DNA of 64,000 nucleotides, from positions 2,418,001-2,482,000 of the forward strand of contig NZ_CP102592.1 in the NCBI RefSeq assembly GCF_025666195.1. The letters are read 5' to 3'. The position numbers were made by a program, and so were the translations under genes. The DNA is from Xanthomonas sp. CFBP 8443 (lineage in GTDB: Bacteria; Pseudomonadota; Gammaproteobacteria; Xanthomonadales; Xanthomonadaceae). Shown here one piece after another: positions 20,465-29,422 of the stretch. A model generated the notes under the pieces. That model was not told the origin of the DNA, searched no databases, and worked only from the letters and a program-made list of their open reading frames with translations. Numbering within the stretch: the first letter of the stretch is position 1; every line of letters starts with the position of its first letter.

Positions 20465-22465
20465 TCAGGCGGCCTGCGGTACCCGCAGCGAGCGCACCAG
20501 TCCGCCGATGTCCACGATCAGCGCGACGCGGCCGTCGCCGAGGATGGTGGCGCCGGAGATGCCGCCGATGCGCCGGTAGTTGTTCTCGATGTTCTTGACC
20601 ACCACCTGCTGCTGGCCGACCAGTTCGTCCACTTCCAGCGCGATCTTCTGGCCGTCGGCTTCCACCACCACCACCAGCGGCTCGGCCTGCTCGGTGCGGC
20701 CGTAGCCGTAGGAGTCGCTGAGCGAGAGGATCGGCAGGTACTCGCCGCGGACCCGCAGCACGCGGCCTTCGCCGGCCATGGTGCGGATGTCGTCGGGCTG
20801 CGGCTGCAGCGCCTCGAGCACGTAGGCCAGCGGCAGGATCAGGGTTTCGCCGGCGACCGACACGGTCATGCCGTCCAGGATCGCCAGGGTCAGCGGCAGC
20901 CGGATCAGCACGCGGGTACCGCGGCCGGAATTGCTTTCCAGCTGCACTTCGCCGCCCAGGCCCTGGATGTTGCGGCGGACCACGTCCATGCCCACGCCAC
21001 GGCCGGACAGGTCAGTGACCGCGTCGGCGGTGGAGAAGCCCGGGGCGAAGATCAGGTCCCACACCTGCGCGTCGGTCGGGTTGTCCGGCACGCTCAGGCC
21101 GCGCTCGGCGGCCTTGGCCAGGATCCGCTCGCGGTTCAGGCCGGCGCCGTCGTCGCTGACTTCGATGACGATGTGCCCGCCCTGGTGCGAGGCGGCCAGG
21201 GTGATGGTGCCGGTCTCGTCCTTGCCGGCGGCGCGGCGCGCTTCGGGCATTTCCAGGCCGTGGTCGATCGAATTGCGCACCAGGTGCACCAGCGGATCGG
21301 CGATCTTCTCGATCAGGCCCTTGTCCAGCTCGGTGCCTTCGCCGATGGTGCGCAGCCGCACCTGCTTGCCGAGGCGGCTGGACAGGTCGCGGACCAGGCG
21401 CGGGAAGCGGCGGAACACCGCATCCACCGGCAGCATGCGCACGCCGATCACCGCTTCCTGCAGGTCGCGGGTGTTGCGTTCGAGCAGGTCCAGGCCGGCG
21501 AACAGGCGTTCGGCATGGGCCGGGTCGAGATCGCCGGAGACCTGCTTGAGCATGGCCTGGGTAATGACCAGTTCGCCGACCAGGTTGATCAGCGCATCGA
21601 CCTTGTCGACGCTGACCCGGATCGAGCTTTCCGCTTCGTGCGCGGCGGCGGCATTGCCGGCCGGCGCATTGGCGGCCACGGCGGCGGCCGGTGCGGCGGT
21701 GGCGCTGGCCGGAGCCTGCGCCAGCACCGGTGCCGGCGCGCTGGCCAGGCTCGGCGGCGGCACCGCGCGGATGTCCAGTTCGCAATCGTCGATCACCCAG
21801 GCGAAGGTGTCCTCGATCGCGCTGCGCGGCACCTTGGCGACCAGGCCCAGGTCCCACGCCAGGTAGGCCTCGAGCGGGTCGAGGTCGTTGAAGCCGGGCA
21901 GGCGGCCGCTGCGGCAGGCGATCTGCAGCGGGCCGAGGTGTTCGAGTTCGCGGATGATGCGCAGCGGGTCGTTGCCGCTCATGAACAGCGACGGCGCGGG
22001 GGTGAAGCCGATCTGCCAGGCTTCCGGCTCGGCCGGCTGGTTGGCGGCCGGGGTCGCCGCGGGCGCGGCGGCGGCGGTGCCGTTCAGGGCCTGCTGCAGG
22101 CGGTCGTGCACGGCCTTGACCGCGACCGGATCGGCCAGGGTGCCGTGCTCGGCTTCGCGCAGCAGCGCGCGCAGCACGTCCACCGAGCCCAGGATCGCAT
22201 CGATCGCGTGCGCTTCCACTTCGCGCTTGCCCGAGCGCAGCTCGTCGAGCAGCGTCTCCAGCACGTGGGTCAGCCCGGCCATCGCCTCGAAGCCGAAGGT
22301 GGCGGCGCCGCCCTTGATCGAGTGCGCGGCGCGGAACACCGAGTTGATCACTTCGGGATCGCGGTTGCCTTCTTCCAGCGACAGCAATCCGGCTTCCATC
22401 GCGTCCAGCCCTTCGCGGCTTTCCTCGAAGAAGGTGGCGTGGAAACGTTGCAGGTCCATGCTCAT
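20465..22465 (-). CDS. cheA: Chemotaxis histidine kinase CheA (first copy)
   Basis: A 666-residue CheA. The Hpt (P1) domain has AAHSIKGGA with the phosphorylatable His48. A Pro/Ala linker and a P2-like domain (about 130-235) follow, then the dimerisation domain (ESSIRVSVDKVDALINLVGELV), the ATPase with LVHLVRNSIDHG, DDGAG and GRGVGMDVV, and a C-terminal CheW-like domain (about 530-666). The start MSMDLQRFHATFFEES parallels E. coli CheA. It autophosphorylates in response to receptors and passes phosphate to CheY. It lies 34 bp after cheY1, in one unit with the STAS gene and cheY1, and ahead of the receptor array it probably serves. Compared with cheA2 it has the extra P2-like domain. Confidence 0.96.
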   Translation of the reverse strand: MSMDLQRFHATFFEESREGLDAMEAGLLSLEEGNRDPEVINSVFRAAHSIKGGAATFGFEAMAGLTHVLETLLDELRSGKREVEAHAIDAILGSVDVLRALLREAEHGTLADPVAVKAVHDRLQQALNGTAAAAPAATPAANQPAEPEAWQIGFTPAPSLFMSGNDPLRIIRELEHLGPLQIACRSGRLPGFNDLDPLEAYLAWDLGLVAKVPRSAIEDTFAWVIDDCELDIRAVPPPSLASAPAPVLAQAPASATAAPAAAVAANAPAGNAAAAHEAESSIRVSVDKVDALINLVGELVITQAMLKQVSGDLDPAHAERLFAGLDLLERNTRDLQEAVIGVRMLPVDAVFRRFPRLVRDLSSRLGKQVRLRTIGEGTELDKGLIEKIADPLVHLVRNSIDHGLEMPEARRAAGKDETGTITLAASHQGGHIVIEVSDDGAGLNRERILAKAAERGLSVPDNPTDAQVWDLIFAPGFSTADAVTDLSGRGVGMDVVRRNIQGLGGEVQLESNSGRGTRVLIRLPLTLAILDGMTVSVAGETLILPLAYVLEALQPQPDDIRTMAGEGRVLRVRGEYLPILSLSDSYGYGRTEQAEPLVVVVEADGQKIALEVDELVGQQQVVVKNIENNYRRIGGISGATILGDGRVALIVDIGGLVRSLRVPQAA

Positions 22466-23440: not shown

Positions 23441-24808
23441 TCAGTGCAGCAGCTGCTCGGCGTCGAGCAGGATCATCGGCTGCGCCCCCAGCCGCGCCAC
23501 GCCGCGGAACAGATGGTTGGAGATGCGGCAGATGCGGGCGTTGTCCGGCGGCTCGATCTGCTGGTCGGTGAGGCTGGCCACGTCCTCGACCGCGGACACG
23601 CGCAGGCCCAGGGTCTCGCCGTTCTCTTCCAGCACCACCACCCGGGTGAGCATGTCCATCTCGATCGGCGCGGCGCCCAGATGGATGCCCAGGTCGATCA
23701 CCGGCACCACCTGGCCACGCAGGTTCATGATCCCCAGCATCGCGGTCGGGGTGCCGCGCAGTGCCAACAGCGGCACCGGCAGCACCACTTCCTGCACCTT
23801 CAGCAGTTCCAGCGCGTAGGCCTGTTCGCCGCAGCGCAGGCGCAGCCAGCGGGTGCTGCGGTCCGGCGCGCGGCGCTGGTGCGGGGAGGCTTCGTGCGCC
23901 GCGCTCGGGGCCATGAACGCCTCCAGGTTGGGCGGCAAGCGCGAGGCTCCGCCGGCCAGTGCGCGCTCGGCCTCGGCGCGACGCTCCGGCGGCACCGCCA
24001 TCGGCGCGCGCTTGATCGCACGCGCTTCGGCGGCATCGTCCTCGGCGGCCAGGTTGCGCGGCGTGGTGACGGCGCGTTCCATCTCCATCGCCGCGACCAC
24101 TTCCAGGTCGGCCTGGCGCTCGGCGTCGGGCTGCGCCTGCTGCGACATGATGCCGGCCAGGGCCGGGTCGGAATCGGCTTCGGCCAGCACCGCGGCGGCG
24201 ATCTCTTCCGGAGTGGGGCCGGCCACGGCAGGCTTCGGTGCCTGCTGCGACATGATGCCGGCCAGGGCCGGATCGGAATCGGCTTCGGCCAGGACCGCGG
24301 CAGCGATTTCTTCCGGGGTGGGGCCGGCCGGCGCGGGCTTCGGCGCCTGTTGCGACATGATGCCGGCCAGGGCCGGATCGGAATCGGCTTCGGCCAGCAC
24401 CGCGGCGGCGATTTCTTCCGGGGTGGGGCCGGCCGGCGCAGGTTTCGGTGCCTGTTGCGACATGATGCCGGCCAGGGCCGGATCGGAATCGGCTTCGGCC
24501 AGCACCGCGGCGGCGATTTCTTCCGGGGTGGGACCGGCCGGCGCAGGTTTCGGCGCCTGCTGCGACATGATCCCGGCCAGGGCCGGATCGGAATCGGCTT
24601 CGGCCAGCACCGCGGCGGCGATTTCTTCAGGTGTAGGGCCGGCCGCTGCGGGCGCCTCGGCGACCGGTTCCGCTTGCGGCGCCGGCGTCGGCGTCGGCGC
24701 GGCGCTGGCCGCGGCCAGCGCTGCCAGCCGTTCGGCGTTCTGCTCTTCGGCGATCACGTCGTGCAGCAGGCCTTCCAGATAGTCGTCGATCACGCCGGGC
24801 GTGTTCAT
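23441..24808 (-). CDS. CheW-domain protein with five tandem repeats (ParP-like)
   Basis: A 455-residue protein. A short amino end (MNTPGVIDDYLEGLLHDVI) is followed by five consecutive 35-residue repeats at 56-230. Their core is AGPTPEEIAAAVLAEADSDP, then ALAGIMSQQ and a PKPAPA linker. A low-complexity linker and a CheW/AIF-type domain (about 317-455, with AMLGIMNLRGQVVPVIDL) follow. It overlaps the ParA-like gene by 4 bp. In Vibrio and Pseudomonas the equivalent pair (ParC with ParP) tethers receptor arrays at the flagellated pole; ParP has a Pro-rich region that meets ParC and a CheW-like domain that meets CheA. I infer the same role. Repeat number is probably variable. Upstream in-frame sequence lies inside the ParA gene. 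Confidence 0.85.
   Translation of the reverse strand: MNTPGVIDDYLEGLLHDVIAEEQNAERLAALAAASAAPTPTPAPQAEPVAEAPAAAGPTPEEIAAAVLAEADSDPALAGIMSQQAPKPAPAGPTPEEIAAAVLAEADSDPALAGIMSQQAPKPAPAGPTPEEIAAAVLAEADSDPALAGIMSQQAPKPAPAGPTPEEIAAAVLAEADSDPALAGIMSQQAPKPAVAGPTPEEIAAAVLAEADSDPALAGIMSQQAQPDAERQADLEVVAAMEMERAVTTPRNLAAEDDAAEARAIKRAPMAVPPERRAEAERALAGGASRLPPNLEAFMAPSAAHEASPHQRRAPDRSTRWLRLRCGEQAYALELLKVQEVVLPVPLLALRGTPTAMLGIMNLRGQVVPVIDLGIHLGAAPIEMDMLTRVVVLEENGETLGLRVSAVEDVASLTDQQIEPPDNARICRISNHLFRGVARLGAQPMILLDAEQLLH
24119..24643 (-). repeat. Five tandem 105-bp coding repeats in the CheW-domain gene
   Basis: Five units of 105 bp (35 codons) stand head to tail in frame. Differences between units are mostly single synonymous bases, and the last unit diverges over its final five codons. 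The near-identity shows recent expansion or homogenisation. Gain or loss of a unit keeps the frame. Confidence 0.93.
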
Positions 24809-25587
24809 GCGGCCTGCTCCATCGGCGTGGCGTCGCTGGCGATCAGCCATTCCAGCGCGCGGCGGTAGGCGGCCAGGCCGCGGCCGGGGTAGTCGCCGGG
24901 CACGCCGGCGACCGTCAAGGCCTTGACGTTGCAGATCTTGGTGTCGACCGGGATCGCGTCTTCCCAGACCCGCTCGCCGTAGCTGTCCTGCATGTGCCGC
25001 AGGCTGTCGTTGCCGGCGCGGGTGCGCTTGTCGAACAGGGTCGGCAGGATCGAGGCGGGCAGGGGCCGGCGGCGCGAGCGCTCGACCATGTCCACGGTGC
25101 GGACCATGCTGGCCAGGCCGTGCAGCGCGAGCGGTTCGGCCTGGGTCGGGATGATCACCCGGTCGGCCGCGGCCAGCGCGTTGATCATCAGCAGGCCCAG
25201 GGTCGGCGGGCAATCGAGCAGGATGTAGTCGTGCTGGCCGACGTGGCGGGCCATGGCCTGTTGCAGCGCCAGGCCGAGCCCGGGCTGGTTGGCGCTGCGC
25301 CGCTCCAGCGTGGCCAGCGCGGTCTGCCCGCAGACGTAGCTGAGGCGGTCGATGGGGCTGTTGTGGGCCAGCGACGCCAGGTCGCCCGGCGGGGTCGCGA
25401 ACAGGTCGAGCACGCCGCTCGGCGGCGGGTCCTGCGGCACGTCGAAGGCGCGGGTCAGCGAGGCGTGCGGATCGAGATCCAGCATCAGCACCCGGTGGCC
25501 GAGCATGGCCAGGCCGCGGCCCAGCGCCAGCGTGGTCGTGGTCTTGCCCACGCCACCCTTCTGGTTGGCAATCGCCCAGATGCGCAT
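24805..25587 (-). CDS. ParA/MinD-family ATPase of the chemotaxis locus (ParC-like)
   Basis: A 260-residue ParA-type ATPase starting MRIWAIANQKGGVGKTTTTLALG, with a deviant Walker A (KGGVGKT), the Walker A' LDLDPHASLTRAF and a YILLDCPPTLGLLMINAL Walker B. There is no amino-terminal DNA-binding extension as in plasmid ParA. It overlaps motD by 1 bp (TGATG) and the CheW-domain gene by 4 bp. In polar flagellates this position is taken by ParC-type ATPases that recruit chemotaxis arrays to the old pole and ensure inheritance at division. It is a chemotaxis placement factor rather than a chromosome-partitioning gene. Confidence 0.88.
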   Translation of the reverse strand: MRIWAIANQKGGVGKTTTTLALGRGLAMLGHRVLMLDLDPHASLTRAFDVPQDPPPSGVLDLFATPPGDLASLAHNSPIDRLSYVCGQTALATLERRSANQPGLGLALQQAMARHVGQHDYILLDCPPTLGLLMINALAAADRVIIPTQAEPLALHGLASMVRTVDMVERSRRRPLPASILPTLFDKRTRAGNDSLRHMQDSYGERVWEDAIPVDTKICNVKALTVAGVPGDYPGRGLAAYRRALEWLIASDATPMEQAA

Positions 25588-27376: not shown

Positions 27377-27446
27377 TGGTGGAGCTCGGGACTCGGGACT
27401 GGGCACCCGGGACTCGGAGGGTGGTCGCGAGTGCGCTGCGTTTTTG

Positions 27447-27550: not shown

Positions 27551-27613
27551 CTTCAGAAAAATCGGCACTTTTTTCATCAAATCGCTTGACAGCGATTTGG
27601 CCCGGGACATCAT

Positions 27614-27683
27614 CCCGAGTCCCGAGTCCCGAGTCCCGAGTCCCGAGTCCCGAGTCCCGAGTCCCGAGTCCCGAGTCCCGAGT
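27614..27683. repeat. Ten tandem heptamers (CCCGAGT) abutting the cheA2 stop codon
   Basis: Ten perfect head-to-tail copies of CCCGAGT (minus strand ACTCGGG) end two bases from the cheA2 stop codon. Units of the form GGGAC plus two bases recur in inverted form at 27385-27417, at the flhA/flhF border and at the fliQ/fliR border. A perfect heptamer array of this length is likely to vary in copy number. Confidence 0.92.
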
Positions 27684-27685
27684 CC

Positions 27686-29422
27686 TCAGCTCTTCAACCC
27701 ATCCACATCCAGGATCAGCGCCAGTCGGCCGTCGCCGATCAGGGTCGCGCCGGCGTAGCCGGGCAGGCCGCGCAGGGCGCGCGGCAGCGGTTTGATCACC
27801 ACTTCCTCGCGGCCGCGGACCTGATCCACGACCAGGCCCATGCGCGATTCGCCGGCCTGCAGCACCACCACGGTGAGCAGCGGCAATTGCGGCGCCTCGA
27901 TGTTCAGCCACTGGCGCAGGTCGACCAGCGGCAGGGTGTGCGATTGCCGGTCGAGCACGGCGCGGCCGTCGAACCAGCCCAGCGAGCGGCTCGGCGCGTG
28001 CAGCACTTCCACCACGCGCGCCAGCGGCAGCGCATAGACGGTGTCGCCGGCCTGCACCAGCAGGGTCGGCAGGATCGCCAGGGTCAGCGGCACGCGGATC
28101 AGGAAGCGGCTGCCGCGGCCCAGTTCGGACTGGATCTGGATCTGCCCGCTGAGTTCGCGGATGCGCGACTGCACCACGTCCATGCCGACGCCGCGGCCGG
28201 AGATGTCGGTGACTTCGGACTTGGTCGAGAAGCCGGGCAGGAACACCAGGTGCAGGCATTCCTCGGTGGTCAGGCGCGCGGCGGCTTCCGGATCGATCAG
28301 GCCCTTCTCGCGCGCTTTCTGGCGCAGGCGTTCGGGGTCGATGCCGGCACCGTCGTCCTGCACCTCGATGCTGACGTAGTCGCCTTCCTGCTGCGCCGAC
28401 AGGCGCACGTGGCCGCCGCGCGGCTTGCCGGTGGCCTCGCGCAGCGCCGGGGTTTCGATGCCGTGGTCGATCGCGTTGCGCACCAGGTGCACCAGCGGAT
28501 CGGCCAGCGCCTCGACCAGGTTGCGGTCCAGTTCGGTTTCGGCGCCGATCAGTTCCAGGTCCACTTCCTTGTTGAGGGAGCGGGCGACGTCGCGCGCCAC
28601 CTTCGGGAAGCGCGAGAACACCTTGCCGACCGGCTGCATGCGGGTGCGCATCACCGCCGACTGCAGGCGCGCGGTGGCGATGTCCAGGCTGCTGACCGCG
28701 CGGTCCAGTTCCTCGTCGCGCAGGCGCACGCGCAGGGTCTTGAGCCGGTTGCGCGACAGCACCAGTTCGCCGATCAGGTTGACGATCGCGTCCAGGCGCT
28801 TGGTGTCCACGCGCACGGTGTGTTCGGGTTCGGCGGCCTTGGCCGGCGCGCCGGCGGGCTTGGCGCTGGGTGCCGGCCGCGGCGCGGCGGCCGGTACCGG
28901 CAGCGCGGCCGGTGCGGCACCGCCGTGCAACTGGTCGAGCAACGCTTCGAATTCGTCGTCGTCGATCATCTCGCTGTTGCCGCCCGCGGCCGCTGCCGGC
29001 GCGGCGACCGCAGCGGCCTTGGCGCTGGGTGCGGCGGTCTCTTCGCCGCTGGTCGCGAACTGCGCGATCAACTGCTGCGGCGCGCGCGGCGGCTCGTTGC
29101 CGCTGCCGAACGCGTCGAGCATCGATTGCAGGTAGTCCAGCGACTGCTGCGCGGCGTCGAAGTGCCGCGCCTGCAACGTGGCCTGGCCGGCGCGGGCCTG
29201 GCCCAGGGTGTCCTCGGCGGCGTGGCACAGCTCGACCATGGCGTTGATCGCCAGGAAGCCGGCGCCGCCCTTGAGCGTGTGGAAGCCGCGGAACACCGCG
29301 TTGAGCTGGTCGCTGTCCTCGGGCGCCTGCTCCAGCGACACCAGCTGCTCGCCGAGCCGGTCCAGGATTTCCTGGGCTTCGATGATGAAGTCGGCAGCGA
29401 TGTCGTCGGGTACGGCGCTCAT
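27686..29422 (-). CDS. cheA: Chemotaxis histidine kinase CheA (second copy, flagellar operon)
   Basis: A 578-residue CheA with the Hpt phospho-site His48 in FRGFHTLKGGAG, a Pro/Ala-rich linker without a recognisable P2 domain, the dimerisation helix pair (EHTVRVDTKRLDAIVNLIGELVL), the ATPase with LVHLVRNAIDHG, DDGAG and GRGVGMDVV, and a CheW-like end. It is shorter than cheA1. It lies 4 bp after cheZ in the flhB-fliA-cheY-cheZ line, the usual place of the motility cheA in polar flagellates. With cheY2 and cheZ it is the likeliest direct controller of motor switching. Confidence 0.95.
   Translation of the reverse strand: MSAVPDDIAADFIIEAQEILDRLGEQLVSLEQAPEDSDQLNAVFRGFHTLKGGAGFLAINAMVELCHAAEDTLGQARAGQATLQARHFDAAQQSLDYLQSMLDAFGSGNEPPRAPQQLIAQFATSGEETAAPSAKAAAVAAPAAAAGGNSEMIDDDEFEALLDQLHGGAAPAALPVPAAAPRPAPSAKPAGAPAKAAEPEHTVRVDTKRLDAIVNLIGELVLSRNRLKTLRVRLRDEELDRAVSSLDIATARLQSAVMRTRMQPVGKVFSRFPKVARDVARSLNKEVDLELIGAETELDRNLVEALADPLVHLVRNAIDHGIETPALREATGKPRGGHVRLSAQQEGDYVSIEVQDDGAGIDPERLRQKAREKGLIDPEAAARLTTEECLHLVFLPGFSTKSEVTDISGRGVGMDVVQSRIRELSGQIQIQSELGRGSRFLIRVPLTLAILPTLLVQAGDTVYALPLARVVEVLHAPSRSLGWFDGRAVLDRQSHTLPLVDLRQWLNIEAPQLPLLTVVVLQAGESRMGLVVDQVRGREEVVIKPLPRALRGLPGYAGATLIGDGRLALILDVDGLKS

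What the first reader, a model, noticed from the sequence alone, without database searches (positions are those of the whole stretch)
24119..24643. Five near-identical 105-bp repeats inside a chemotaxis-array placement protein
The CheW-domain (ParP-like) gene carries five in-frame 35-residue units between its amino end and its CheW domain. Units differ by a few mostly synonymous bases, so the array is young or being homogenised. If these units are the contact for the ParA-like partner, copy number would tune polar tethering of receptor arrays and could be a reversible motility switch.
Basis: partly seen in the sequence, partly recalled or inferred. Interest (0 to 1): 0.75.

Follow-up and report, generated by a model that had tools for sequence, protein, structure and literature searches.

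The report
Repeat-bearing tether in chemotaxis-array anchor protein
A protein thought to anchor the chemical-sensing machinery of a Xanthomonas carries five near-identical repeats in its middle, and relatives carry three to six, so this looks like a variable multi-point docking strip rather than the part that grips the pole-marking partner.

Summary
In detail: five in-frame 105-bp units (24119-24643, minus strand) in a 455-aa ParP-type gene beside a ParC-type ATPase gene. Unit number varies (3 to 6) over the 20 genus genomes searched, this one included, and units resemble each other more within than between genomes, so the array turns over. It is not simply young: core synonymous sites differ by 21% while core residues are identical in all five units, so the core is under purifying selection. 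Unit changes keep the frame, so on/off switching is unlikely; within-species variation could not be tested. The likely ParC contact is the N-terminal YLxxLL helix: it is in 108 of 110 family ParPs and 42 of 46 ParC-adjacent ORFs elsewhere in the class, whose linkers show no strong repeats (0 of 41 scorable). Strong linker repeats recur in the family (66 of 110) with different motifs; in four genera they are copies of a motif that other gammaproteobacteria carry in tandem in CheA. CheA and ParP-linker copy numbers are inversely related (79 genomes), but independent contrasts are too few to prove it. Best reading: a multivalent docking array, partner unknown.

The parts
23441..24808 (-). ParP-type gene, 455 aa: N-terminal helix, repeat linker, CheW-like domain
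   Evidence: ORF and Pfam CheW match; single full-length match in the genome
24743..24790 (-). N-terminal conserved motif IDDYLEGLLHDVIAEE, likely ParC contact
   Evidence: coordinates; motif in 108 of 110 family ParPs and 42 of 46 class ORFs next to ParC; role by homology with Vibrio ParP (PMC5706961)
24539..24643 (-). repeat unit 1
24434..24538 (-). repeat unit 2
24329..24433 (-). repeat unit 3
24224..24328 (-). repeat unit 4 (last residue P to V)
24119..24223 (-). repeat unit 5 (core kept, last five residues diverged)
23447..23845 (-). CheW-like domain, residues 322-454; lacks the WLAG-type tryptophan motif of most other gammaproteobacterial ParPs
24805..25587 (-). ParC-type ParA/MinD ATPase gene, overlapping the ParP start by 4 bp
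27686..29422 (-). CheA gene of the same cluster
28922..28966 (-). single copy of the CheA LID-region motif IDDDEFEALLDQLHG

Best explanation
The gene encodes a ParP-type adaptor that links chemoreceptor arrays to the ParC ATPase. Its N-terminal helix (IDDYLEGLL...) most likely binds ParC, and its C-terminal CheW-like domain most likely sits in the array baseplate. The linker between them carries a tandem array of a conserved short, probably helical motif (PEEIAAAVLAEADSDPALAGIM) on a variable Pro/Ala spacer. I read each unit as one docking site, so the array is a multivalent strip whose valence and length change by whole units through recombination between repeats. The most likely partner is an array component (a CheW-like domain or CheA), with the strip taking over part of the work that tandem LID-region motifs in CheA do in other gammaproteobacteria. 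Shown: architecture, unit conservation and turnover, copy-number variation between species, recurrence of linker repeats in the family, and the raw inverse relation to CheA motif number. Inferred: helix, docking, partner, recombination as the route, and valence effect.
For: Core under purifying selection: within the window array pS 0.21, pN 0; over 98 units of 20 genomes pN/pS is 0.07 in helix 1 and 0.11 in DPALAGIM, against 0.49 in the spacer (78 units, last unit of each array left out). The same motif is found in other genera: 15 of 16 genomes of g17 (unit spacing 26-30 aa in the two g17 genomes searched), 1 of 1 in g44, 3 of 5 in g45; in 7 genomes searched it gave no strong match outside ParP. 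In genera g9, g16, g27 and g33, 13 of 15 ParP linkers instead hold 1-4 copies of the CheA LID-region motif, with profile scores of 45-56 against shuffle maxima of 3.5 or less in those listed. Copies in CheA and in the ParP linker are inversely related: of 48 genomes with two or more in CheA, 2 have two or more LID/DP units in ParP; of 31 with none or one, 25 do. CheA-LID binds ParP's array domain in Vibrio (PMC5706961, passages; PMC7534058, passage). That ParA-type ATPases meet their partners through the partner's N-terminus is stated in PMC10241942 (passage), which supports leaving ParC to the N-terminal helix.
Against: The repeat motif of this window is not detectably similar to the LID motif (score at shuffle level), so 'takes over for LID' rests on position and count alone. 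The inverse relation has only 3 well-supported independent contrasts (sign test median p 0.5). It weakens if any strong linker repeat is counted: 4 of 28 genomes with two or more CheA copies have one (all g29), against 28 of 31, and with a looser motif a third genome (G262) joins the 2 of 48. Six genomes (g22 twice, g4, g26, g27, g52) have one CheA copy and fewer than two LID/DP units in ParP. The tryptophan motif that probably holds V. cholerae W305, the CheA contact, is absent from 110 of 110 family ParPs (the match to W305 is my inference), so an AIF-LID type contact may not exist here. Synonymous divergence is itself lower in the core (0.22-0.29) than in the first seven codons (0.59), unexplained. 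AlphaFold2 gave low confidence (mean pLDDT 42.7); the helices it drew in the units are only a hint.
Confidence: 0.4

Rival explanations
1. The repeats are a length-setting tether: they hold the ParC-binding end and the array domain apart, and helical units serve only for stiffness and solubility.
For: Position matches the long proline-rich linker of Vibrio ParP (PMC5706961); linkers differ widely in length and motif between genera; 44 of 110 family linkers and all 41 scorable class linkers lack strong repeats.
Against: Residue-level conservation of the core (pN/pS 0.07-0.11) against a free spacer (0.49), and the same core in other genera, are more than a tether needs.
Confidence: 0.25
2. One reading: each unit contacts the ParC ATPase, and copy number tunes polar tethering.
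For: Tandem sites on a ParA partner would raise avidity; ParC and ParP genes overlap.
Against: No strong repeats in 41 scorable ORFs beside ParC elsewhere in the class (5 of 46 too short to score; three reach z 3.2-3.3; 4 of 46 lack the N-terminal motif and two of those, L198 and L220, are CheW proteins). ParC stays conserved (54-89% identity to the window's in 15 other family sequences) while the linker motif changes between genera. Units do not resemble the N-terminal motif (0 of 102 scorable).
Confidence: 0.13
3. The units bind another polar factor, such as a FimV/HubP-type landmark or a bridging protein between it and ParC.
For: A review says a yet-unidentified factor must link ParC and HubP in V. 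cholerae (PMC7534058, passage).
Against: Nothing in the sequence points to such a partner; not tested here.
Confidence: 0.12
4. A minisatellite with no selected function, kept alike by recombination alone.
For: Strong within-genome homogenisation and one genome (G012) with two adjacent identical units.
Against: Homogenisation acts on synonymous and non-synonymous sites alike, yet pS is 0.21 and pN 0 in the core; at least three units in 20 of 20 genus genomes.
Confidence: 0.05

Closest known systems
Vibrio ParC/ParP system (ParP with AIF domain)
   Same: ParC-type ATPase gene overlapping a gene for a protein with a conserved N-terminal segment, a long Pro/Ala-rich linker and a C-terminal CheW/SH3-like domain, in a chemotaxis-flagellar cluster
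   Different: Linker carries 35-aa tandem units; the C-terminal domain scores as CheW and lacks the WLAG-type tryptophan motif; STAS and CheY genes follow, with no CheW gene directly after ParP in 26 of 26 family loci examined
CheA LID (localisation and inheritance domain)
   Same: Tandem short motifs in a linker of the same array system; in four genera of this family the LID-region motif itself sits in the ParP linker (13 of 15 genomes)
   Different: The window's motif is a different sequence, on ParP rather than CheA
Polar organisers with variable tandem repeats (Legionella fimV)
   Same: Variable repeats in a protein of cell-pole organisation; known to me here only from a reference-list entry (Coil and Anne 2010, cited in PMC12918733)
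   Different: Unrelated protein and partner

Membership tests
ParP | gene directly downstream of and overlapping parC in a chemotaxis cluster | tested here: met
   4-bp overlap at 24805-24808; MotB, MotA, CheA upstream
ParP | N-terminal ParC-interaction segment shared with other ParPs | tested here: met
   IDDYLEGLL; related YLxxLL motif in 42 of 46 class ORFs. Binding itself not tested
ParP | C-terminal AIF domain forming its own clade apart from CheW | tested here: inconclusive
   Best tree puts 26 family domains on the CheW side of a long branch; AU test does not reject a clade with AIF (p 0.566)
ParP | AIF tryptophan (V. cholerae W305) needed for CheA binding | tested here: not met
   with one pattern for both groups: WLAG-type motif in 0 of 110 family ParPs and 37 of 46 class ORFs in the ParP slot (38 with G or A at the last place); 0 of 43 class CheW. 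Equating it with W305 is inference
ParP | CheA with LID encoded with the ParC/ParP system | tested here: inconclusive
   one LID-region motif copy in the window's CheA; that this motif is the LID rests on position, no Vibrio sequence was compared
ParP | tethers arrays to the pole through ParC | not testable with these tools
   needs cell biology
ParC | ParA/MinD Walker ATPase, chemotaxis-specific group | tested here: met
   Pfam AAA_31/CbiA; listed class matches fall in two groups, ParC-type (E 1.4e-68 or lower) and about 1e-51 to the 1e-45 cut-off, taken as chromosomal ParA
CheA LID motif | sequence profile of LID-region units from other gammaproteobacteria | tested here: not met
   window linker best score -10.8 against shuffle mean -11.4
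on/off phase-variable locus | repeat unit whose gain or loss shifts the frame | tested here: not met
   105 bp = 35 codons, unit spacing 35 in all 20 genus genomes
on/off phase-variable locus | reversible change within one strain | not testable with these tools
   one genome per species in the collections used

The most novel reading that the evidence does not exclude
In the Xanthomonadaceae the docking motifs that hold ParP and CheA together have moved between proteins: CheA lost tandem LID-region motifs while ParP's linker gained a tandem array (LID copies in some genera, a new motif in Xanthomonas), joined to a CheW-type rather than AIF-type domain. ParP would then crosslink the baseplate itself, with valence set by a fast-evolving unit number.
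Probability: 0.25. Interest if true: 0.75.

Novelty: new variant of a known kind. Interest (0 to 1): 0.5.

Why it matters
The ParC/ParP mechanism has been worked out in Vibrio (PMC5706961). If the reading is right, one family has rebuilt the link between ParP, CheA and the baseplate several times, and unit number is a natural series (3 to 6, or other motifs) for testing how valence sets array size and position. Even the plain result is useful: ParP linkers in this family are not featureless, and in four genera the CheA motif sits on ParP.

Tried and rejected
Units as LID homologues: rejected for this window, profile score at shuffle level (up to four members per genus listed; g22 units scored weakly above all 60 shuffles, two g45 genomes were matched by 1 of 60). 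Units as copies of the N-terminal motif: 0 of 102 scorable above all shuffles (8 of 110 too short). Units used elsewhere in the genome: none convincing; apart from ParP the best in 7 genomes was E 0.0057 in G005. Fold search: not run, because the model was too poor (mean pLDDT 42.7, pTM 0.15). Descent of the C-terminal domain from CheW by fusion: suggested by gene order and best tree, not decided (AU p 0.566). Phylogenetically corrected CheA/ParP trade-off: too few contrasts. Within-species unit number: no collection with several strains. first looked in the wrong ORF (cheW) for class ParPs; one search put this right. Rows dropped: L053 and L062 (cut by contig ends) from the 110 family ParPs; G034 (CheA cut) and L198 (its ParC-adjacent ORF is a CheW) from the CheA/ParP table; no CheA found in L224, L232, L131, L132, L167, L170 (the genomes of L131 and L132 were covered). 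Of 135 family genomes with a match I parsed 110. The patterns for motifs were written after seeing the sequences; shuffles and profiles are the controls. The LID profile was built from 44 units of class CheA, so class CheA counts are not independent of it. My first tryptophan count used slightly different patterns for the two groups; one search repeats it with one pattern.

Full report
What is there. The array is real: five in-frame units of 105 bp on the minus strand at 24119-24643. They span residues 56-230 of a 455-residue protein (23441-24808) with a CheW domain at its C-terminus (PF01584, E 2e-30). The start of this gene overlaps by 4 bp the end of a ParA/MinD-type ATPase gene (24805-25587), and MotB, MotA and CheA lie upstream; STAS-domain and CheY-type genes follow. 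The genome gives one full-length match. The four named relatives found by protein search are all Xanthomonas, so I take this to be a Xanthomonas; the species was not identified.

Age and turnover. In the window, 30 core residues are identical in all five units, while synonymous sites differ by 0.21 (pN 0). Over 98 units in 20 genomes, pN/pS is 0.07 in the first helix, 0.11 in DPALAGIM, 0.15 and 0.14 in the codons before and after, and 0.49 in the spacer. So the core is kept by selection. Synonymous divergence is also lower in the core than in the first seven codons (0.22-0.29 against 0.59), which I cannot explain. Units are more alike within than between genomes (pS 0.21 against 0.36 under permutation; nearest unit in the same genome for 64% against 4% expected). 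All 20 genus genomes searched have the gene, with 3 units in 3, 4 in 2, 5 in 9 and 6 in 6. Close relatives differ: G002, G005, G015 and G008, with CheW-domain pS 0.04-0.05 between them, have 5, 3, 6 and 6 units. On a poorly resolved tree (11 of 17 inner branches open) at least 9 changes are needed, and one genome (G012) has two adjacent identical units. Copy number therefore changes on the time scale of species. Whether it changes within a species could not be tested.

Comparison across the family and class. Of 297 family genomes, 135 matched at E 1e-25; I parsed 110 ParP proteins. The N-terminal motif is in 108 of 110. Linkers have strong internal repeats (z above 5, my threshold) in 66 of 110 (one of these, G113, is a short Pro-rich linker). 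Elsewhere in the class I took the ORF directly after ParC in 46 of 47 loci: 0 of 41 scorable linkers pass, though three reach z 3.2-3.3 with no shuffle as high; five are too short. 42 of the 46 have the N-terminal motif; of the other four, two are CheW proteins. The repeated motifs differ by genus: the window's motif (also in g17, g44 and part of g45), the LID-region motif EFEALLDxLHG (g9, 7 of 9 g16, g27, g33), WDDLPAEVIYET (g29) and DELEAVFEQAHAEAK (g22).

CheA. In CheA of other gammaproteobacteria the region between the phosphotransfer part and the kinase core carries two or three copies of EFEALLDxLHG (17 of 17, by a profile built from class CheA; 12 of 12 further genomes of the order outside the family). 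In the window's CheA there is one, and in six of six g17 genomes none. Over 79 genomes, two or more LID/DP units in ParP occur in 2 of 48 with two or more CheA copies and in 25 of 31 with fewer. Fisher p is 8e-13, but genomes are related: only three well-supported independent contrasts exist, and the sign test is not significant (median p 0.5). If any strong linker repeat is counted, the split over the 59 genomes is 4 of 28 against 28 of 31; the four are g29. By position, and by the printed statement that the LID occurs only in species with ParC and ParP (PMC7534058, passage), I take this region to be the LID; no Vibrio sequence was compared.

The C-terminal domain. Family ParPs lack the WLAG-type tryptophan motif found in 37 of 46 class ORFs in the ParP slot (0 of 110). 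In the class a CheW reading frame is found within 43 of the 47 fetched loci. In 26 of 26 family loci examined no CheW frame follows ParP directly; STAS and CheY frames follow within about 0.6 kb in 25, in one (L286) the STAS frame begins 1.2 kb on, and two have a CheW about 2.9 kb on (only 1.5 kb downstream was held for two loci). The domain may be CheW-derived, but an AU test does not reject common descent with AIF (p 0.566).

Mechanism. In Vibrio, ParP's N-terminal domain binds ParC, its C-terminal AIF domain binds receptors and CheA-LID, and a proline-rich linker joins them (PMC5706961; outline with abstract, section 13 and passages read). One sentence in a review says instead that ParP's C-terminal domain binds ParC (PMC7534058); I follow the primary paper. 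The repeats occupy the linker, so the homology argument puts ParC contact outside them. Their conservation and recurrence favour docking sites over an inert spacer. The partner is not known; an array component is my first choice because the CheA motif can sit in the same place and because CheA and ParP copy numbers trade off. The window's own motif is not LID-like, which is the main weakness.

Print. Searches for ParP with ParC, CheW and chemotaxis; CheA with LID and ParP; Xanthomonas with CheW, ParA and tandem repeats; ParP with tandem repeat and chemosensory array; Xanthomonas with cell pole and ParA-like; Xanthomonas with ParP; ParP with FimV and Pseudomonas putida; and Xanthomonas with CheW and minisatellite listed no paper that I could see describes these repeats, judged from capped listings and starts of abstracts. 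The library is open-access only, so this is weak evidence of absence.

Noticed in passing
window 27613-27685, with an inverted copy at 27385-27398: A perfect 7-bp repeat (TCCCGAG, 10.4 copies) directly after the cheA stop and about 270 bp upstream of motA; a related 7-bp array lies next to the cheA match in L242.
   Followed up: partly
L097, L098, L100 (g9), L111, L114 (g33), L082, L083, L086, L087 (g16): ParP linkers carry two or more copies of the CheA LID-region motif; in g9 and g33 the CheA itself has none.
   Followed up: yes
L067, L069, L070, L072, L075 (g29) and L099, L113 (g22): Other linker repeats: WDDLPAEVIYET and DELEAVFEQAHAEAK.
   Followed up: partly
L273-L292, L007-L010, L039, L041: In the family ParP is followed by STAS and CheY genes rather than directly by cheW as in most other gammaproteobacterial loci fetched.
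   Followed up: yes
window 20465-22465: A second CheA gene lies about 1 kb downstream of the ParP gene; its translation shows no EFEALLD motif.
   Followed up: no
papers PMC12410967 and PMC12918733: One says Pseudomonas aeruginosa has no genes related to ParC/ParP, the other that potential orthologues exist in Pseudomonas (passages).
   Followed up: no
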